64,000 bases of DNA from Sporosarcina sp. E16_8 (lineage in GTDB: Bacteria > Bacillota > Bacilli > Bacillales_A > Planococcaceae), in the NCBI RefSeq assembly GCF_017347095.1, contig NZ_JADPRZ010000007.1, positions 62,001-126,000 of the forward strand. Reading direction: 5' to 3'. The first letter of the stretch is position 1; each line of letters opens with the position of its first letter. A model generated the notes under the pieces. That model ran no database searches. It was given only the letters and a program-made list of their open reading frames with translations, and was not told the DNA's origin. This document shows positions 11,428 to 18,783 of the stretch, piece by piece. A program made the translations under genes and the position numbers.

Positions 11428-12111
11428 ATGAGTTTTTTAGACAGGTTATTCGGCAAGTCCACTACAACAACTAAAGAGGAGACGGTAAACATGACAAAAA
11501 CAAAAACAGCAATCGTATACTACAGTTCAGGCGGTACGAACTATCAATTAGCACAATGGGCGGCAGAGGCTGCTGAAGCAGCAGGTTCTGAAGTTAGACT
11601 GATGAAAGTGGCTGAAACAGCTCCACAAGCTGCAATCGATTCATCTCCAGGCTGGAAAGCTAATGCTGAAGCAACGAAAGACGTTCCTGTTGCAACAGGA
11701 GAAGATCTTGAGTGGGCAGATGCAATTATCTTTAGTGTACCAACGCGTTTCGGTAATGTACCTGGGCAAATCCAAAGTTTCTTTGATACATTAGGTGGTT
11801 TTTGGTTCCAAGGCAAGCTCGCTAACAAAGCAGTAAGCGCAATGTCATCTGCACAAAACCCGCATGGCGGCCAGGAAGCGACAATCCTGTCCCTTTACAC
11901 AACGATGTACCATTGGGGTGCAGTTGTTGCAGCGCCTGGATATACAGACGCGGTTACATTTGCAGCTGGCGGTAACCCGTACGGCACAAGTGTGACAGTC
12001 GGACAAGACGGAAAAATCGCGGACGACGAAGGGGTAATTAAAGCAGCGGTTGCTCATCAAGCTGGACGTACAGTAAAAGTTGGAGCGGCATTGAAGAGTA
12101 TGAACGCATAA
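11428..12111 (+). CDS. wrbA: NAD(P)H:quinone oxidoreductase, WrbA-type flavodoxin-like
   Basis: FMN-dependent two-electron quinone reductase. Flavodoxin-like phosphate loop YYSSGGTNYQLA, PTRFGNVPGQIQSFFDTLG (flavin ring) and HWGAVVAAPGY are typical. Two in-frame starts each carry a ribosome site: ATG 11428 (GTGGAG, 8 nt) giving an N-terminal MSFLDRLFGKSTTTTKEE extension, and ATG 11491 (AGAGGAG, 9 nt) giving the standard WrbA N-terminus. The longer frame is annotated; the shorter may be the main product. It lies 22 nt after mhqD, the third gene of the operon, and reduces quinones to hydroquinones for the dioxygenase. Confidence 0.9.
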   Translation: MSFLDRLFGKSTTTTKEETVNMTKTKTAIVYYSSGGTNYQLAQWAAEAAEAAGSEVRLMKVAETAPQAAIDSSPGWKANAEATKDVPVATGEDLEWADAIIFSVPTRFGNVPGQIQSFFDTLGGFWFQGKLANKAVSAMSSAQNPHGGQEATILSLYTTMYHWGAVVAAPGYTDAVTFAAGGNPYGTSVTVGQDGKIADDEGVIKAAVAHQAGRTVKVGAALKSMNA

Positions 12112-12119
12112 GTGTGACT

Positions 12120-12150
12120 GAAGCCGGCCTGTGATGGGTCGGTTTTTTTG
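12120..12150 (+). terminator. Terminator after wrbA
   Basis: An imperfect GC stem (GCCGGCC and GGGTCGG with a 6-nt loop) is followed by seven T. Confidence 0.6.
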
Positions 12151-12184
12151 TGTTTAGAAATGGGTTGATCTATATTTGGAAAAT

Positions 12185-12594
12185 GACCGATCGTAAACCT
12201 CGCGCGCGCGATCATATAAGTTGTTGCGCGATCGTAAACCTCGCGCGCGCGATCATATAAGTCTTTGCGCGATCGTAAACCCCGCGCGCGCGATCATATA
12301 AGTTGTTGCGCGATCGTAAACCCCACGCACGCGCGATCATATAAGTTGTAAACCGATCATAAACCCCGCACGCGCGATCATATAAGTTGTAAACCGATCA
12401 TAAACCCCGCACGCGCGATCATATAAGTTGTTAAGCGATCATAAACCCCGCACGCGCGATCATATAAGTTGTTAAGCGATCATAAGTCCCGCACGCGTGA
12501 TCATATAAGTTGTAAACCAATCATAAACCCCGCACGCGCGATCATATAAGTTGTTAAGCGATCATAAACTCCGCGCACCCGATCATAAACCAAT
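12185..12594. repeat. Tandem array of ten 41-bp repeats
   Basis: Units begin with GATC(G/A)TAAACC at 12189, 12230, 12271, 12312, 12355, 12396, 12437, 12478, 12519 and 12560. The period is 41 bp except one 43-bp step. Each unit has two related half-sites, GATCRTAAACC and GCGCGATCATATAAG, joined by a CG-rich linker that in the first units is pure alternating CG. A last half-site ends at about 12594. About twenty GATC sites are present; unit nine has lost one (AATC). It lies between the convergent wrbA gene and a membrane protein gene, so it is not a promoter or leader. No open frame crosses it sensibly. Confidence 0.95.
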
Positions 12595-12603
12595 GCAATT
12601 AAC

Positions 12604-13146
12604 CTATTTAACTTTCTTCGGCCGCGGCCAGATGAAGTACGAAATAGAAATAATAAAGTCAATCCCGAGAACGAGTGCCCATACTTTCAAGGTGGCGTAT
12701 AGTACCTCTGTTCTTGCTGGATCCCCGATGAAATAAATCATAGCGACAAGGAAAGCGCCGCCGATTATATAAGCAAGCAGATGTTGCAATGTACCTTTCA
12801 TCGAGTGGCGAGCGTATTCGAATCCGACCTTACGTACAGGTTTTGTGCCCGTTTTTTGAATGTAGAATTGAAACCGTTCATCAGCCCAACGGATCATGCT
12901 TTTGCCGAACGCGATGGAAGAACCGAGATAGATTGCCGCGATGGCGTGTACTTGCGTTGCGGTTGCCCCGTTGTATAGGTCGGTTGCTGTGACGATGAGT
13001 AAGATTAAATCGACAACTGGCGTCAAAGCAAGAAAGAAAAAACCGAGCTTTTTTCGTTTGAAAATGTAGCGAGTGATAAGCCCGAGAGCAATGACGACCC
13101 AGAAACCAATTTCACAGGCGACGATTGTCCAAGCAATGAAATTCAT
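12604..13146 (-). CDS. Integral membrane protein, possibly YmcC-like
   Basis: 180 residues with about four hydrophobic helices (residues ~3-27, 34-53, 68-85, 123-143) and a final one at ~152-172, ending in a basic tail WPRPKKVK. There are no catalytic motifs. I recall similarity to small Bacillus inner-membrane proteins such as YmcC, at low certainty. AGGTGTTCC precedes the ATG on the minus strand and gives the start. It is convergent with wrbA across the tandem array, and 217 bp from the end of prsA with a terminator in between. Confidence 0.7.
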   Translation of the reverse strand: MNFIAWTIVACEIGFWVVIALGLITRYIFKRKKLGFFFLALTPVVDLILLIVTATDLYNGATATQVHAIAAIYLGSSIAFGKSMIRWADERFQFYIQKTGTKPVRKVGFEYARHSMKGTLQHLLAYIIGGAFLVAMIYFIGDPARTEVLYATLKVWALVLGIDFIISISYFIWPRPKKVK

Positions 13147-13362: not shown

Positions 13363-14253
13363 TTATTTTGTTAGTAACGAATTCTCAATTTTATAGTCCA
13401 ACTTAACTTCATCTAACCAATTAACGTACTCTACTTGTACACCTTCTTCTAGTAATAGCCCTTTAATTTCTTCCTTAAGCTCACTTAATACTGCTTTTTT
13501 TGCTGCTTTCTTATCGGTTACGTGAATAATATGATAACCGTGTTCTGTTTTTACAGGGTCGCTAATTGCATCAACTTTCATTGAAAATGCTACATCTTCA
13601 AATTCAGCTACCATTTTACCGCGTGGGAAAAGGCCTAATTCTCCGCCATTTTCTGCACTCATTGTATCCGTTGAGAATTCTTTTGCAAGTGTAGCGAAAT
13701 CCTCTCCGTCTGCAAGTTTCTTCGCAACTTTTTTCGCTGTGGCTTCATCTTCCACTAATATATGGCTAGCTGCTACTTGTTCTTCCTCGTTGAAAGACTC
13801 TTTGTTTTCTTCGAAGTATGCTTTGATATCCTCATCAGTTATCTCAATCCGTGGTTCAATTATTTTTCGGATAGACAAATAATCAACAATATTCTCCTTG
13901 AACTCTTTCTCTGTCATAGCATTTGTCTTGAGTGCAGCGTCAAAAGCTTCCTGCCCACCGGCATTTTCGACGTATATTGCAAGTTCTGCATCTACTTCTT
14001 TATCGGAAACGGAGACTTTTTCTTTTTTTAACTCGAGTACAACGACTTTATCATCAATCATTGCAGTAAGCGCTTCTTGCCCAGCTGATTGAACGAGAAC
14101 TTCATATAATTCATCTTTCGTAATTTTTTCATCACCTATAGTTGCTACGGTTTCATCTGTTGCCTTTGAATCTTTTGAGCAGCCCGTTGTGACAGTTAGA
14201 ATAATTGCGAGTAGACTGACTGCTAACAATGGGAATAACTTCTTTTTACGCAT
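13363..14253 (-). CDS. prsA: PrsA foldase lipoprotein (parvulin peptidyl-prolyl isomerase)
   Basis: 296 residues. Signal peptide MRKKKLFPLLAVSLLAIIL ends in a lipobox TTGC (Cys25), anchoring the protein outside the membrane. Residues ~32-125 are the N-terminal chaperone region, ~155-250 the parvulin domain with AASHILV, GELGLFPRGKMVAEFE and KTEHGYHIIHV. It helps secreted proteins fold after export. The promoter (-10 TAGAAT, + strand 14286-14291) has the same upstream heptad as htrA at the same spacing. This suggests control by the neighbouring two-component system together with htrA and the 28-residue-repeat gene. Threonine at lipobox -3 is unusual but tolerated. Confidence 0.93.
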   Translation of the reverse strand: MRKKKLFPLLAVSLLAIILTVTTGCSKDSKATDETVATIGDEKITKDELYEVLVQSAGQEALTAMIDDKVVVLELKKEKVSVSDKEVDAELAIYVENAGGQEAFDAALKTNAMTEKEFKENIVDYLSIRKIIEPRIEITDEDIKAYFEENKESFNEEEQVAASHILVEDEATAKKVAKKLADGEDFATLAKEFSTDTMSAENGGELGLFPRGKMVAEFEDVAFSMKVDAISDPVKTEHGYHIIHVTDKKAAKKAVLSELKEEIKGLLLEEGVQVEYVNWLDEVKLDYKIENSLLTK

Positions 14254-14285
14254 ATTTTAATTCCTCCAATGTTTGATATACATTC

Positions 14286-14330
14286 ATTCTACAGCAGAAA
14301 TATGAACAAACTATTACAGAGAATGAAATA
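14286..14330 (-). promoter_or_regulatory. prsA promoter with heptad operator
   Basis: On the minus strand, -10 TAGAAT (14291-14286), 17-nt spacer, and a poor -35 ATAGTT (14314-14309). On the + strand the heptads are TGAACAA (14303-14309), TTACAGA (14314-14320) and a weak TGAAATA near 14324. The first begins 12 bp from the -10 edge, exactly as at htrA. Confidence 0.7.
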
Positions 14331-14334
14331 GAAT

Positions 14335-14366
14335 AAAAAAACGGAAAAACAGATTCGTTTTTCCGT
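14335..14366 (-). terminator. Terminator of the 28-residue-repeat gene
   Basis: ACGGAAAAAC (14341-14350) and GTTTTTCCGT (14357-14366) form the stem; on the minus strand a run of T follows. It closes the gene ending at 14389. Confidence 0.85.
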
Positions 14367-14388
14367 TCAGTCGATTTATTTCTGAGTG

Positions 14389-15183
14389 TTATTTTCCTTC
14401 TCGCTCACCTTTGCCATGTTCATGTCCACCTTCAAAATGTTTTCCTTTACCATCACGTGGTCTATCGAAGAAAAAGTCTTTTTTTCCTCTTGAATGGAAG
14501 AGGTCCAATTCTTCAGCTTTGTCGGCGTAATTTGTACGGATTTCATCCATCAGTTCACGTGCGGATTTGTTGGCTGTATTGATGCCTAGTTTTTCTGCAG
14601 CATTGAAAACTTCTTTGTCCCGTACTTCTTCCATCAAGGCATGTTTATCTTTGCCGTCAGTTTCAATACCCAGTTCTTTTGCTTTTTGTAAGACTTTAGC
14701 TTCCCCGACTTCTTTTGCAAGTGCTTTGAAGTCTTTGCCGTTAGTGGAGATGCCAAGTTCTTTCGCTTCTTTCATAATTTGTGTTTCTCGAATTTCTTTT
14801 GCTAACGTTTCTTCATCCTTGCCAGTTGCATCAATGCCTAATTCTGTTGCTTCTCTTTGGAGTTTCACATTCCAAATTTCTTTTTGAAGGGCTTTTATTT
14901 CTTTTCCTTCAGTTTCAATCCCTAGTTCTTTCGCGTGTTTAAGGGTCATGGCTTTTTGTACTTCTTCGAAAATTTCTTTGGCGTTCTTACCGTCAGTTTT
15001 AATTCCAAGTTCTTCTGCTTTCTCCGAAATGAACTTTGTAGCGTCACCTTGTTCTCCGTGTTTATGTTCGAGCGAAGGGGATTTTTTCGTCTCGCTATCC
15101 GCATTCGCATAGGCTGTAGCCGACCCAATTACACCTAGTGTCAACACCGTTGCTAAACCATACTTTATTGCATTCTTCTTCAT
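14389..15183 (-). CDS. Secreted protein with six 28-residue helical repeats
   Basis: 264 residues. Signal peptide (residues 1-28, cleavage near AYANA) without lipobox, then six repeats with the anchor LGI at 59, 87, 115, 143, 171 and 199, exactly 28 residues apart, plus a degenerate seventh (EELDLF at ~224). Repeat consensus: A-K-E-LGI-x-T-x-GK-(D/E)-x-x-AL-x-KE-(V/I). Each unit probably folds as two short helices with a turn, somewhat like SAP/HeH motifs. The C-terminus is rich in Gly, His, Lys and Glu (KHFEGGHEHGKGEREGK) and could bind metal. No known family was recognised. Its promoter shares the three 11-bp-spaced heptads found at htrA and prsA, so I infer a role in envelope protein quality control or stress. 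Confidence 0.85.
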   Translation of the reverse strand: MKKNAIKYGLATVLTLGVIGSATAYANADSETKKSPSLEHKHGEQGDATKFISEKAEELGIKTDGKNAKEIFEEVQKAMTLKHAKELGIETEGKEIKALQKEIWNVKLQREATELGIDATGKDEETLAKEIRETQIMKEAKELGISTNGKDFKALAKEVGEAKVLQKAKELGIETDGKDKHALMEEVRDKEVFNAAEKLGINTANKSARELMDEIRTNYADKAEELDLFHSRGKKDFFFDRPRDGKGKHFEGGHEHGKGEREGK

Positions 15184-15216
15184 TTAATTTCCTCCTTCAG
15201 GGTTCTAATTAATTTT

Positions 15217-15262
15217 AGTATGCCCGATAAATATGAACGAATTATGACCAAGGTGTGAACGA
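15217..15262 (-). promoter_or_regulatory. Promoter of the repeat gene with three heptads
   Basis: On the + strand TGAACGA (15234-15240), TGACCAA (15245-15251) and TGAACGA (15256-15262) recur every 11 bp. The -10 on the minus strand is CATACT (15222-15217), 12 bp from the first heptad, and the -35 (ATAATT) is poor. This is the clearest copy of the shared operator. Confidence 0.75.
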
Positions 15263-15267
15263 GATAT

Positions 15268-15299
15268 AAAAAGGCTGCTATGCGCAATGCATAACAGCT
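15268..15299 (-). terminator. Terminator after the sensor kinase gene
   Basis: GGCTGCTATGC (15273-15283) and GCATAACAGC (15289-15298) pair; the minus-strand product ends in TTTTT (15272-15268). It closes the htrA-regulator-kinase unit. Confidence 0.8.
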
Positions 15300-15310
15300 A
15301 AAACAGATTT

Positions 15311-16726
15311 TTAGTTTTGGTTTTGTGCGGGAAACGACAACGTAAACTTTGTCCCTTTCCCTTTTTCACTAGTGACATCGATTGCGCCGTTATGCATCAT
15401 AACAAGGCTTTTTACAATTGATAAGCCAAGTCCGAATTCGCCGTAGGGATTCGTTGTTCTAGATACAATCGCTTTATAAAATCGACTCCAAATTTTCTCA
15501 ATATCGTCAGGGTCAATGCCGATACCGGTATCTTCAATTTCGATGACACAGTTAGTGTCGCTCATATAACCACGAAGGTAGATCCTGCCATTTTCGGCAA
15601 ATTGGATACTGTTTTTCGTAATGTTGATCAATATCTGGGTGAGTCTGTCGTAATCTGCAAACACTAAAACGGTGGGGTCTACATCCACAAAAATCTCATT
15701 ATTTCGTTCTGCCGCAACGCCATCGAGTTGATCCTTAATAATTTCCAACAATTCAAAGAGCTGGATGTCCTGTTTAATGAGTGTAACTTGGTTGGAGCGA
15801 ATTTTTTCGTAATCCAAATTTTCATTGACCAGACGGATAAGTCGCAACGTTTCATTAGTGGCAAGCTGCAATCCCTTTTCTTTTTCAGATTCAGGGATCA
15901 TATTATTTTTCAGGCCCTCAATCATGCCTCTAATCGTTGTAAGTGGTGTTCGCAATTCGTGTGATACATCGGCCATGAATTGGCGACGCCTGTTTTCAAG
16001 ATTTTCAATTTCCTCCATTGAGGCGTCCAGCTTCTCAACCATTTTGTTGAAATCACCCGCAAGCTCGCTGATTTCATCAAAATTCGAAGAGGGGATACGT
16101 ACCGAGTAATCACCTTGTGCAACGGCAGAAGTTGCTGCTTGAAGCCGTTTAATACGCCTTACGTGGAAAGTCGATAAAATCCAGCTGATTAGAAGCGAAA
16201 TGGCCAGCGCGATGAACGTTGTAATAAGCAAATAAGTGTTCATTTGCGAAATTACTTCACGTGAACCCTTTATGGGAGATGTCAAAAGTATGCCGCCAAC
16301 AAATCGATTATTTTGTACATAGGGAAGAAGAACGAATGTGACGGCTTCGTTGAATCGTTTGAAATCCTGCTTCACAGTTACAGGCTCACCATTTTTAATA
16401 TCGTGCCATTCCTCTTCACTCAGACTAATAAGTGGCGTTTTTATGCCTGTCGAATAAATGATGGCTGAATTCTCGTCGAATAAACTATATTGAATATCCC
16501 GACCATTTAGGACTTGTCCGTAAGCCTTTAAAATCCTGTCAGAACTTCTTTGGTCTTGTTGGATGTCTCGTAAAATAGATTGACCATATGTCGCTAGTTC
16601 TTCTGTTTTATTAGCATAGACAAACCGCTCGATATAGTGTGAAAATAGCAAGCTTAATAATAAAAAGGCTATGACGATTACGCTGAAGTGACTGACAAGT
16701 TGTTGGTATAAATACTTTACTCTCAC
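15311..16726 (-). CDS. Envelope sensor histidine kinase
   Basis: 471 residues: TM1 (~14-34), an extracellular domain of ~130 residues (35-163), TM2 (~164-187), HAMP (~188-240), HisKA with VSHELRTPLTTIRG (His256), and ATPase with N box (NITKNSIQFAENG), DTGIGID and GEFGLGLSI. It is classical kinase architecture, paired with the OmpR-type regulator whose gene it overlaps by 4 bp. The extracellular domain could sense misfolded exported proteins. Context (HtrA upstream in the same unit, PrsA next door) is that of the B. subtilis CssRS secretion-stress system, but sequence does not identify it as CssS; it could be another envelope system. Confidence 0.9.
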   Translation of the reverse strand: MRVKYLYQQLVSHFSVIVIAFLLLSLLFSHYIERFVYANKTEELATYGQSILRDIQQDQRSSDRILKAYGQVLNGRDIQYSLFDENSAIIYSTGIKTPLISLSEEEWHDIKNGEPVTVKQDFKRFNEAVTFVLLPYVQNNRFVGGILLTSPIKGSREVISQMNTYLLITTFIALAISLLISWILSTFHVRRIKRLQAATSAVAQGDYSVRIPSSNFDEISELAGDFNKMVEKLDASMEEIENLENRRRQFMADVSHELRTPLTTIRGMIEGLKNNMIPESEKEKGLQLATNETLRLIRLVNENLDYEKIRSNQVTLIKQDIQLFELLEIIKDQLDGVAAERNNEIFVDVDPTVLVFADYDRLTQILINITKNSIQFAENGRIYLRGYMSDTNCVIEIEDTGIGIDPDDIEKIWSRFYKAIVSRTTNPYGEFGLGLSIVKSLVMMHNGAIDVTSEKGKGTKFTLSFPAQNQN

Positions 16727-17424
16727 TTTGAGTCACCTAAGGTTTCGTCGAATCGGTAACCGACACCCCAAACAGTATGGAAGAATGGCTGTTCATCCGT
16801 TGAGACTTTCGTGCGAAGCCGTTTGATATGCACGTCGACAGTTCGGTCATCGCCGTAAAAGTCATATCCCCAGACATTGTCCAGCAATTGTTCACGTGAG
16901 AAAACTTGTTTCGGATGCTGGACAAAATGGTAGAGCAGATCGAACTCTTTTGGCGTCAGGTTTTGTACGGGCACTCCGTCGAGCAATACATCACGTGTGT
17001 GTAGGTTAATCTTAAAATGGGCTGTTTCGACGACGCCATCTTGCAGCGGTTTGTCTTTCAGTGTTGAATACCTCCGTGTTACCGCTTTAATACGGGCCAT
17101 AAGCGCCAGTGGACTAAATGGTTTTGTGACATAATCATCTGCCCCCATTTCTAGTCCGAGCACCTGGTCTGATTCACCGTCTTTTGCGGTTAGCATAATA
17201 ATTGGCGTAGCAATGCTTGCTAATCGTAGTTTATGGCAAATTGAAATACCGTCCATGCCAGGCAGCATCCAGTCAATAATGATGCAATCCCAGCCGCCCT
17301 GCTTCGCAAGTTCGAAGCCTTCTAAACCGTTTTTAATGAATGAACCATCAATTTCTTCCTTTAAAAAAAATAGCTCAATCATGGTAGATACACTCTCATT
17401 GTCTTCGATTACTAAAATTTTCAC
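16723..17424 (-). CDS. OmpR/PhoP-family response regulator
   Basis: 233 residues. Receiver domain (1-118) with acidic pair IEDN (7-8), Asp51 (IIDWMLPGMDG), Thr79 (MLTA) and Lys101 (VTKPF). A winged-helix output domain (~135-228) has LTPKEFDLLYHFVQHP and VDVHIKRLRTKV recognition helix. Regulators of this family bind tandem direct repeats of about 11-bp period as head-to-tail dimers. Exactly such repeats occur at the htrA, prsA and 28-residue-repeat promoters, so these are its proposed targets. It overlaps the kinase gene by 4 bp and lies 114 bp after htrA. Confidence 0.92.
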   Translation of the reverse strand: MKILVIEDNESVSTMIELFFLKEEIDGSFIKNGLEGFELAKQGGWDCIIIDWMLPGMDGISICHKLRLASIATPIIMLTAKDGESDQVLGLEMGADDYVTKPFSPLALMARIKAVTRRYSTLKDKPLQDGVVETAHFKINLHTRDVLLDGVPVQNLTPKEFDLLYHFVQHPKQVFSREQLLDNVWGYDFYGDDRTVDVHIKRLRTKVSTDEQPFFHTVWGVGYRFDETLGDSK

Positions 17425-17489
17425 TGAAATACGCCTCCTGTTGCACTTCCATTCCTTTCAAGTTAAATCGAAAACGGGAAATTAGCAAC

Positions 17490-17530
17490 TGCAAACACCC
17501 CTCCCATGAAATGAGGGAGAGGTGTTTGCA
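17490..17530 (-). terminator. Hairpin between htrA and the regulator gene
   Basis: TGCAAACACC (17490-17499) and GGTGTTTGCA (17521-17530), with CTCCC and GAGGG inside, form a strong stem. No clear T-run follows on the minus strand, so it is more likely an attenuator or mRNA-processing site giving more htrA than regulator message. Confidence 0.55.
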
Positions 17531-17538
17531 CGAATATA

Positions 17539-18705
17539 TTAATTTGCCGTGGATACATTGCTCGTAAGTAAAACATCAACCGTTTTTAACTCTGCACCGC
17601 GATAGATTGTAAATGTTGCTTTATCACCGACTGAAAGATTCGTGTACAAGAACTTTCGCAGCTCTGTTGAATTCTTCACTTCAGTGCCGTTTATCGCAGT
17701 TATTATATCTTCTACATCGAGGCCTGCTTTTCCTGCTGCGGATGCAGGATCAATAGTTGCAATTACCACACCGGCTGTAACTTCATTTGGAAGACCTTGC
17801 AAGTAGGTACGTGGCACCTGATCAAGATCCGCAAGTCCGATACCGATATAGGGACGTTCAACTTGCCCGTTTGCTGTCATTTCTTCAATAAGTGGAACCA
17901 CTTCGTTACTCGGAATCGCAAAGCCAAGACCTTCAACACCACTTTCTGAAATTTTCAAGCTGTTAATGCCTATAACTTGTCCTGCCGCGTTGAGGAGTGC
18001 ACCACCGCTGTTGCCCGGGTTAATGGCGGCGTCGGTTTGGATAACATTCATTTCCCATTCGCCTGCAGATGTCTTCACATTAATGGATCGATTAACTGCA
18101 CTTACAATTCCTTGGGTCACTGTACCGGAGAAGTCGAGGCCAAGTGGATTACCGATGGCGATAACCTCGTCTCCTGCACGAAGTTTATCGGAGTCGCCGA
18201 ATTCAAGGGAAGTGTCTGCAAACTTAGCATCGATTGTGAGAACAGCGAGGTCGCTTAGTGCATCTTTCCCGACAAGTGTGGCCATCGTTGACTCTCCGTT
18301 TTCAAGTGAAACTTCAATTTTTTCAGCACCTTCAATGACGTGGTTATTCGTCACGATATACGCTTTGTCACCTTTTATTTTATAAATGACACCCGAACCA
18401 GAACCGCTCTTGGCGTTACCGGCTTGCTGTGAAAAAGGATTACTATCTTTTTGGTAATTAACAATCCCGACAATCGCGCTGGATGATTTTTCTACCATAT
18501 CGGATAGTGACGGTGTATCCTTAGTGCCTGTTTGCTGTACAATATAGGGAACTTTATCCGTAGTGACCGGAACCGTTTCGGCAGAACTGCCTTGTAGTAA
18601 ATCTGTATTGACTACGACTGCTAACGTTAATACCGAACCAATAACACCTGCACCTAATGTTGCTAAAAATCGTTTGCCTGGTTTATTTTTAATTTCTGTC
18701 TCCAT
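17539..18705 (-). CDS. htrA: HtrA-type membrane-anchored serine protease with PDZ domain
   Basis: 388 residues: short cytoplasmic N-terminus, one membrane helix (~13-35), linker, trypsin-like domain with His122 (TNNHVI), Asp152 (SDLAVL) and Ser233 (GNSGGAL), and one PDZ domain (~290-380, IGIGLADLD to AGLDVEDIITAING). It degrades misfolded exported proteins outside the membrane. HtrA, HtrB and HtrC (YyxA) paralogs cannot be told apart by eye. It is first gene of a unit with a response regulator and kinase. It is divergent from the LacI-family gene, with the heptad operator in the shared intergenic region. Confidence 0.93.
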   Translation of the reverse strand: METEIKNKPGKRFLATLGAGVIGSVLTLAVVVNTDLLQGSSAETVPVTTDKVPYIVQQTGTKDTPSLSDMVEKSSSAIVGIVNYQKDSNPFSQQAGNAKSGSGSGVIYKIKGDKAYIVTNNHVIEGAEKIEVSLENGESTMATLVGKDALSDLAVLTIDAKFADTSLEFGDSDKLRAGDEVIAIGNPLGLDFSGTVTQGIVSAVNRSINVKTSAGEWEMNVIQTDAAINPGNSGGALLNAAGQVIGINSLKISESGVEGLGFAIPSNEVVPLIEEMTANGQVERPYIGIGLADLDQVPRTYLQGLPNEVTAGVVIATIDPASAAGKAGLDVEDIITAINGTEVKNSTELRKFLYTNLSVGDKATFTIYRGAELKTVDVLLTSNVSTAN

Positions 18706-18737
18706 GCTAATTCCTCCCGTGTCGTCTGATACCCTTT

Positions 18738-18783
18738 ATTTTAGTTGGAATATATGAACAAACTATTACCAAGAAGTTAACAA
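18738..18783 (-). promoter_or_regulatory. htrA promoter with three heptads
   Basis: On the + strand: TGAACAA (18755-18761), TTACCAA (18766-18772) and TTAACAA (18777-18783), period 11 bp. The -10 on the minus strand is TAAAAT (18743-18738); the -35 is ATAGTT, far from consensus, as expected for an activator-dependent promoter. The heptad-to-(-10) spacing equals that at prsA. Confidence 0.75.

What the first reader, a model, noticed from the sequence alone, without database searches (positions are those of the whole stretch)
13363..18783. Three promoters in one locus share a phased heptad operator: a local secretion-stress regulon
htrA, prsA and the 28-residue-repeat gene each have upstream heptads with 11-bp period. 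htrA has TGAACAA 18755, TTACCAA 18766, TTAACAA 18777; the repeat gene has TGAACGA 15234, TGACCAA 15245, TGAACGA 15256; prsA has TGAACAA 14303, TTACAGA 14314 and a weaker third. In all three the first heptad is 12 bp from a recognisable -10, and the -35 is poor. OmpR/PhoP-family activators bind repeats of this kind, and such a regulator with its kinase sits in the same locus. Protease, foldase and an unknown secreted protein would be raised together. In B. subtilis CssRS controls htrA and htrB; adding prsA and this repeat protein would be a different wiring.
Basis: partly seen in the sequence, partly recalled or inferred. Interest (0 to 1): 0.75.

Follow-up and report, generated by a model that had tools for sequence, protein, structure and literature searches.

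The report
Conserved PieR-type operator at secretion genes
Three neighbouring genes for handling exported proteins share the same on-switch sequence, which most likely belongs to the regulator encoded beside them; the same switch recurs in relatives and in Listeria, where this regulator is already known to control such genes.

Summary
All eight named heptads lie at the stated coordinates, 11 bp apart, with a -10 another 11 bp downstream. A matrix trained on other genomes' htrA/prsA promoters ranks these three sites first in the window (41.1, 35.5, 31.2; next non-overlapping 5.3; simulated maximum 16.5). In the genus the site precedes htrA in 53 of 53 genomes with the kinase, prsA in 16 of 16 and the repeat gene in 2 of 2; 7 htrA and 6 prsA paralogue controls lack it. 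The 15 genomes without the kinase lack this htrA too.

The regulator groups with Listeria PieR and Bacillus YclJ. A pattern built without Listeria sequences hits htrA, an lmo0881-type gene and the permease beside pieRS in 5 of 5 Listeriaceae genomes, prsA1 in 2 of 5; reversed control 0. prsA2 lacks a clear site.

So 'foldase, HtrA and unknown secreted protein' is the published PieRS wiring, here packed into one locus with a lineage-specific helical-repeat protein as an extra target. Two further candidate sites exist elsewhere in this genome. Binding, direction and signal are inferred; 'secretion stress' as the trigger is unproven.

The parts
18738..18783 (-). operator-promoter of htrA: three heptads at 11-bp steps, 11 bp from TAAAAT
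   Evidence: matrix score 41.1, rank 1 of the window; equivalent site upstream of htrA in 53 of 53 genus genomes with the kinase, this one included
17539..18705 (-). htrA, trypsin-like protease with PDZ domain
   Evidence: Pfam Trypsin_2 and PDZ_2; NCBIfam Do-family 293 bits, below the curated cut-off of 416
17490..17530 (-). strong hairpin between htrA and the regulator gene, without a clear T run: weak terminator or attenuator
   Evidence: 16-pair stem in the fold of the 121-nt stretch containing it (whole stretch -45 kcal/mol); not called as a terminator
16723..17424 (-). response regulator, PieR/YclJ orthologue
   Evidence: best NCBIfam hit PieR, 347 bits, below the cut-off of 450; starred clade with Listeriaceae and B. 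velezensis regulators
15311..16726 (-). sensor histidine kinase, PieS/YclK orthologue
   Evidence: best NCBIfam hit PieS, 539 bits, below the cut-off of 850; 47% identity to Listeriaceae PieS over 470 positions
15274..15298 (-). terminator-like hairpin after the kinase gene, just before the repeat-gene operator
   Evidence: the scan's total of 5 terminator-like hits equals its shuffle mean of 5.0, so position is the argument
15217..15262 (-). operator-promoter of the repeat gene
   Evidence: matrix score 35.5, rank 2; 24.7 in G020
14389..15183 (-). protein with an apparent signal peptide (by eye) and 28-residue helical repeats, family unnamed
   Evidence: 58 homologues among 8000 scored candidates, mostly hypothetical or unnamed, a few with inconsistent automatic names; about one helix per repeat predicted, block pLDDT 71-89 over residues 51-230, overall 68, pTM 0.53
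14339..14368 (-). terminator-like hairpin after the repeat gene, just before the prsA operator
   Evidence: same caution as above
14286..14331 (-). operator-promoter of prsA
   Evidence: matrix score 31.2, rank 3; site upstream of prsA in 16 of 16 kinase-positive genus genomes with a locus-type prsA, this one included
13363..14253 (-). prsA, parvulin peptidyl-prolyl isomerase, lipoprotein-like by eye
   Evidence: Pfam Rotamase_3 and SurA_N_3; the PrsA equivalog cut-offs of NCBIfam are not reached

Best explanation
The locus is a compact PieRS/YclJK regulon. The kinase at 15311-16726 senses an unknown envelope cue and phosphorylates the regulator at 16723-17424. The regulator binds direct repeats of about TTGTTCA spaced 11 bp, about one DNA turn, on one face, in front of htrA, the repeat gene and prsA. 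The last repeat ends 11 bp before the -10 and so covers the -35 position, as in other OmpR/PhoB-type activated promoters (recalled); this suggests direct activation of promoters that lack a good -35. Outcome: a surface protease, a foldase and a secreted helical-repeat protein rise together. Shown: the sites, their spacing, their conservation, the orthology of regulator and kinase, and a match to most of the published PieRS targets that could be located. Inferred: DNA binding, activation rather than repression, and the signal.
For: Ranks 1-3 of the window with a matrix from other genomes; simulated maximum 16.5 in 47.3 million positions. Genus: htrA site in 53 of 53 kinase-positive genomes (lowest 28.9), prsA 16 of 16 (lowest 21.5), repeat gene 2 of 2 (the window is one of each, and 4 of the 53 genomes also supplied training sites, judged by equal contig lengths). 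Named loci (30 examined): htrA 22 of 22, of which 17 are training sites; prsA 5 of 10 at 20 or more, all 5 training sites. Controls: best score -5.6 in 7 stretches around htrA paralogues and 1.8 in 6 around core prsA. Kinase (E up to 1e-100) and locus-type htrA co-occur: 53 with both, 15 with neither, of 68. Strict pattern: a hit in 40 of 53 kinase-positive genomes (39 at the locus) against 1 of 15 kinase-negative. Regulator tree: 65-row PieR/YclJ clade, support 100/99, apart from 13 own-genome paralogues; recognition helix near-identical. Listeriaceae: pattern hits at htrA 5 of 5, lmo0881-type gene 5 of 5, permease beside pieRS 5 of 5, prsA1 2 of 5 (matrix 13.0-19.9 in 5 of 5), reversed control 0; published PieRS targets include prsA1, lmo0881, lmo1505 and lmo1506.
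Against: No binding or expression data. The gene taken as Listeria prsA2, a published PieRS target, has no clear site in 5 of 5 genomes, and lmo0442 could not be located. The pattern also hits a NUDIX gene (3 of 5) and an arylsulfotransferase (1 of 5) that are not in the published list. The prsA1 scores of 13.0-19.9 overlap the upper end of the simulated range. The kinase-negative genome G019 still has a half-good site (22.2) before its prsA. The prsA site is missing or weak in 5 of 10 named loci, though in three of those prsA lies within about 50 bp behind htrA. Two other own-genome sites at 21.5 and 22.7 precede a multicopper oxidase and another kinase, so either the regulon is wider or a related regulator reads similar sequences. 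PieR and PieS scores fall below the NCBIfam cut-offs. Kinase, htrA and site may be co-inherited as one block, so co-occurrence alone does not prove that this regulator reads the site. The matrix is ungapped, so the constant spacing is partly built in.
Confidence: 0.86

Rival explanations
1. The heptads are read by another OmpR-family regulator, such as WalR or PhoP, whose recalled boxes also use TGT-rich repeats at 11 bp, and the neighbouring pair is incidental.
For: The recalled WalR box TGTWAH-N5-TGTWAH resembles TGTTAATAGTTTGTTCA. Similar sites occur at a kinase gene and a copper oxidase on contig C13 of the own genome.
Against: Strict sites are in 40 of 53 genomes with this kinase and 1 of 15 without, although the latter keep an htrA paralogue; that those 15 keep WalR was not tested. 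In Listeriaceae the same operator marks published PieRS targets. In B. velezensis and Metabacillus it sits before the permease divergent from the orthologous pair.
Confidence: 0.07
2. The regulator is a CssR equivalent and the locus is a CssRS secretion-stress regulon.
For: HtrA-type targets are shared; a review says CssRS raises htrA1 and htrA2 in B. subtilis (passage).
Against: The closest named families are PieR and PieS, and the regulator groups with Listeriaceae and B. velezensis regulators. No CssR sequence was compared directly.
Confidence: 0.03
3. The regulator represses rather than activates these promoters, by sitting on the -35.
For: The last heptad overlaps the -35 position; the sequence alone does not give the sign.
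Against: The -35 is poor, and YclJ is reported to activate yngABC and ykcBC in B. subtilis (passages).
Confidence: 0.06

Closest known systems
Listeria monocytogenes PieRS and its regulon (PrsA1, PrsA2, Lmo0442, Lmo0881, Lmo1505, Lmo1506; htrA per a review)
   Same: Orthologous kinase and regulator; targets include prsA, htrA and an unknown secreted protein; the operator found here also lies before htrA, prsA1, the lmo0881-type gene and the permease in Listeriaceae.
   Different: In Listeriaceae the hits are scattered over the genome and the permease adjoins the pair; here the targets flank the pair, no permease adjoins it, and the third target is a 28-residue-repeat protein.
Bacillus subtilis YclJK
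   Same: Orthologous pair in B. velezensis (named YclJK by recall from its divergent permease); that permease is 52% identical to the Listeriaceae one and carries the operator. B. subtilis itself matches the PieS model (control). The YclJ box TTCATANTTT is recalled only; the library gave no hit.
   Different: The passages read name yngABC and ykcBC (glycosylation) as YclJ targets and induction of yclJK via ResDE at low oxygen; htrA and prsA are not named there.
Bacillus subtilis CssRS
   Same: A two-component pair linked to an htrA gene and to surface protein quality control.
   Different: Closest-family hits and the regulator tree place this pair with PieRS/YclJK.
PhoB/OmpR-type operators (recalled)
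   Same: 7-bp direct repeats at 11-bp steps covering the -35, with a -10 about 11 bp downstream.
   Different: The heptad here is TTGTTCA-like.

Membership tests
PieRS/YclJK two-component system | Regulator in the orthologous clade with Listeriaceae PieR and B. velezensis YclJ, apart from paralogues | tested here: met
   65-row clade at 100/99 against 13 own-genome paralogues; 78 of 111 collected rows were used, the window's own copy and the distant L066-L097 being left out, and one own-genome OmpR-type hit (L013) gave no row. Long branches are flagged by the program
PieRS/YclJK two-component system | Score above the NCBIfam equivalog cut-offs for PieR and PieS | tested here: not met
   347 of 450 and 539 of 850 bits, although both are the best hits. 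The PieS cut-off is passed by 29 of 395 genomes, all in one family (Listeriaceae by inference), and by 0 of 398. It is therefore filed as an orthologue, not as a Listeria-type PieRS
PieRS/YclJK two-component system | Operator shared with published PieRS targets | tested here: met
   htrA, lmo0881-type gene and permease in 5 of 5 Listeriaceae genomes, reversed control 0; prsA1 2 of 5 by pattern; prsA2 fails in 5 of 5
PieRS/YclJK two-component system | Permease divergent from the regulator | tested here: not met
   not beside the pair here; present in B. velezensis, Metabacillus and Listeriaceae. The rest of this genome was not searched for it
PieRS/YclJK two-component system | Regulator controls prsA and htrA transcription | not testable with these tools
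   needs expression data
CssRS | Orthology to B. subtilis CssR/CssS | tested here: inconclusive
   no CssR sequence was fetched; the regulator is firmly placed in another clade
OmpR/PhoB-type direct-repeat operator | Direct repeats with an 11-bp period at a fixed distance from the -10 | tested here: met
   self-similarity of the 53 genus htrA sites is highest at lag 11 (0.454; next lag 14, 0.41); T, A and final T of the -10 invariant at 11 bp in all 53, with an ungapped matrix

The most novel reading that the evidence does not exclude
PieRS and YclJK are one ancestral envelope system of the Bacilli, parallel to CssRS, whose portable 11-bp-phased operator has been attached to different surface-protein genes in different lineages; in Sporosarcina and relatives it has become a compact protein-quality-control island (protease, foldase and a new secreted helical-repeat factor) that is gained and lost as one unit.
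Probability: 0.5. Interest if true: 0.68.

Novelty: new variant of a known kind. Interest (0 to 1): 0.55.

Why it matters
The biological role of YclJK in B. subtilis is called unknown in the paper consulted (passages), and no cue of PieRS is established in the passages read. A single operator that predicts targets in Listeriaceae, Bacillaceae and Planococcaceae joins the two systems, gives a testable target list in any of these genomes, and points to protein quality control outside the membrane as a common theme. The repeat protein, with the same switch as HtrA and PrsA, becomes a candidate quality-control factor.

Tried and rejected
Chance: rejected by null and controls; the null covered one strand only, so one search repeated it on both. 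CssRS as the system: not supported. Autoregulation of the pair in this genus: no site of 20 or more in front of the regulator in the 52 genus loci nor of 5 or more in the window; in several Bacillaceae an opposite-strand site lies about 75-140 bp upstream of the regulator, not resolved. Wide regulon: not supported by the strict pattern (11 off-locus hits against 8 reversed), but two looser sites in the own genome remain open (one search gave 8 places, 3 of them the window's, against 2 for the reversed pattern). Of 32 named-locus promoters examined, 10 failed the first cut and were re-examined: all 5 htrA cases had a site further upstream; the 5 prsA cases did not reach 20. Repeat-protein structure: helical repeats, but no Foldseek match at E 0.001 or better and only weak PDB sequence hits, E 0.005-0.009. 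The primary PieRS paper was not held, so its regulon is taken from the follow-up paper PMC12234432 (parts 1 and 2 of 6 read, passages elsewhere) and reviews (passages). No paper in the library holds 'TTCATANTTT', YclJ with 'direct repeat' and 'binding', or Sporosarcina with htrA, prsA and two-component. The search was badly set (one term sufficed); none of its 15 listed papers holds both YclJK and PieRS, nor does any of the 10 listed hold YclJ.
Full report
What is there. Five genes lie on the minus strand: htrA (17539-18705), response regulator (16723-17424), histidine kinase (15311-16726), a 264-residue protein with an apparent signal peptide and 28-residue repeats (14389-15183), and prsA (13363-14253). 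Terminator-like hairpins follow the kinase and the repeat gene, so the repeat gene and prsA probably each start from their own promoter; a strong hairpin without a clear T run follows htrA. The window lies in a 4.38-Mb genome; the nearest named regulator is from a Sporosarcina psychrophila assembly, 88% identical.

The sites. All eight heptads are at the stated positions. In gene direction each promoter reads heptad-N4-heptad-N4-heptad-N11-(-10). With a rough heptad score from the window I examined 32 htrA/prsA promoters in named relatives (22 htrA, 10 prsA); 22 passed (17 htrA, 5 prsA) and gave a 46-column matrix. In the window it returns the three sites as ranks 1-3 (41.1, 35.5, 31.2), then shifted overlaps (14.7, 11.1) and 5.3. 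Simulated sequence reaches 14.6 in 256 kb and 16.5 in 47.3 million positions on both strands, none at 20. Re-scoring all 32 with longer upstream stretches gives htrA 22 of 22 and prsA 5 of 10 at 20 or more; of the failing five, two score 13.1 and 14.9 and three are negative and lie within about 50 bp behind htrA, probably co-transcribed.

Genus test. Of 68 genus genomes, 53 have the kinase and the same 53 have the locus-type htrA (57% identity or more); the other 15 keep only a distant htrA paralogue (42-46%). The site precedes htrA in 53 of 53 (28.9-44.6), prsA in 16 of 16 (21.5-49.3) and the repeat gene in 2 of 2 (24.7, 35.5) (the window is one of each; four of the 53 also supplied training sites). 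In the 53 htrA sites the block TAA-TA(A/G)T-TTGTT(C/A)A is invariant but for its two bracketed columns, three bases of the -10 are invariant, and self-similarity is highest at lag 11. Controls: 7 stretches around paralogous htrA genes score at most -5.6 and 6 around core prsA at most 1.8. Of 3 kinase-negative genomes with a locus-type prsA, two have no site of 10 or more and one (G019) has 22.2, perhaps a remnant. A strict pattern finds 65 places in 41 genomes: 54 at this locus and 11 elsewhere, against 8 for the reversed pattern. A looser pattern in the own genome gives 8 places, 3 of them the window's, against 2 reversed; two of the others score 21.5 and 22.7 and stand before a multicopper oxidase and a kinase on contig C13, above anything simulated, so they are probably sites of this or a related regulator.

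Which regulator. The best NCBIfam models are PieR and PieS, below their cut-offs. In a tree of 78 regulators the window protein falls in a 65-row clade (100/99) with Listeriaceae and B. velezensis proteins, apart from 13 paralogues of its own genome; the region GD(D/E)RTVDVHIKRLR is the same in window, B. velezensis and Listeriaceae proteins, while the own paralogues shown differ. In B. velezensis and Metabacillus the pair stands divergent from an FtsX-type permease with the operator in front of it; the B. velezensis permease is 52% identical to the one beside the Listeriaceae pair. That the B. velezensis pair is YclJK is recalled.

Listeria test. Genomes taken as Listeriaceae were found by the PieS model (33 of 395 matched, 29 above the cut-off). 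In 5 of these 33, a pattern built from non-Listeria sites with up to 3 mismatches gave 21 places, reversed control 0: lmo0881-type gene 5 of 5 (in G695 two primer stretches from PMC12234432 match lmo0881 without mismatch; in G742 likeness by eye only), htrA 5 of 5 (48-49% to the window htrA), permease 5 of 5, prsA1 2 of 5 (matrix 13.0-19.9 in 5 of 5), a NUDIX gene 3 of 5, an arylsulfotransferase 1 of 5. The other PrsA gene, taken as prsA2, has no clear site in 5 of 5. The published PieRS regulon is PrsA1, PrsA2, Lmo0442, Lmo0881, Lmo1505 and Lmo1506 (PMC12234432, parts 1-2 read); a review adds htrA (PMC12826053, passages). Lmo0442 could not be located.

Mechanism. Most likely the phosphorylated regulator sits as tandem monomers on the three repeats, covers the -35 and recruits polymerase to a promoter with a good -10 only. 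Sign and binding are inferred; YclJ is reported as an activator of yngABC and ykcBC (PMC7961091, passages). Signal: unknown. yclJK is reported to be raised by ResDE at low oxygen and PieRS is proposed to answer harsh gut conditions (PMC11236296, passages), so 'secretion stress' is a guess from the targets.

The repeat protein. 2 of 261 family genomes carry it, both at this locus; relatives occur beside the pair in Lederbergia-type and Niallia loci and among 58 database proteins (8000 candidates scored), mostly hypothetical. In two Lederbergia-type loci its promoter shares an ATCGGGCAT block and one heptad with the window. The model gives about one helix per repeat without a convincing structural match. 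A client-binding or scaffold role is a guess.

Verdict. Real, conserved and best read as a compact PieRS/YclJK regulon. What I did not find in print, within the searches named, is the operator joining both systems, its concentration at this locus in the genus, and the repeat gene as a target; the wiring itself is known from Listeria.

Noticed in passing
window 12145-12620: About 11-12 imperfect tandem units of 41 bp (nine overlapping copies reported, which searched 12100-12700 only) beside the locus, with GC-rich palindromic cores.
   Followed up: partly
L191:2995-3040 and L192:3022-3067 (own genome C13, about 39.4 and 24.8 kb): Two sites similar to the operator (21.5, 22.7) before a CueO-like multicopper oxidase and another histidine kinase, near regulator L015: further targets, or a related system with a similar box.
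   Followed up: partly
L023, L028, L029, L038, L042, L065, upstream of the regulator on the opposite strand: Operator-like repeats about 75-140 bp upstream of the regulator without a matching -10 or an obvious divergent gene: possible autoregulation in Bacillaceae.
   Followed up: no
L030:8305-8350, L034:8096-8141 and L233:4200-4245: Operator-like sites (17.8-21.3) about 210-230 bp before a gene that by eye resembles peptide release factor 3 in Metabacillus-type genomes.
   Followed up: no
L275, L286, L289 (Listeriaceae): Operator-like sites 110-133 bp before a NUDIX gene in 3 of 5 genomes, a possible PieRS target not in the regulon listed by PMC12234432.
   Followed up: partly
L057:9616-9661 and L051:8322-8367: Weak operator-like sites (17.4, 10.7) near membrane-protein-like genes in Enterococcus loci that encode a distant orthologue of the pair.
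   Followed up: no
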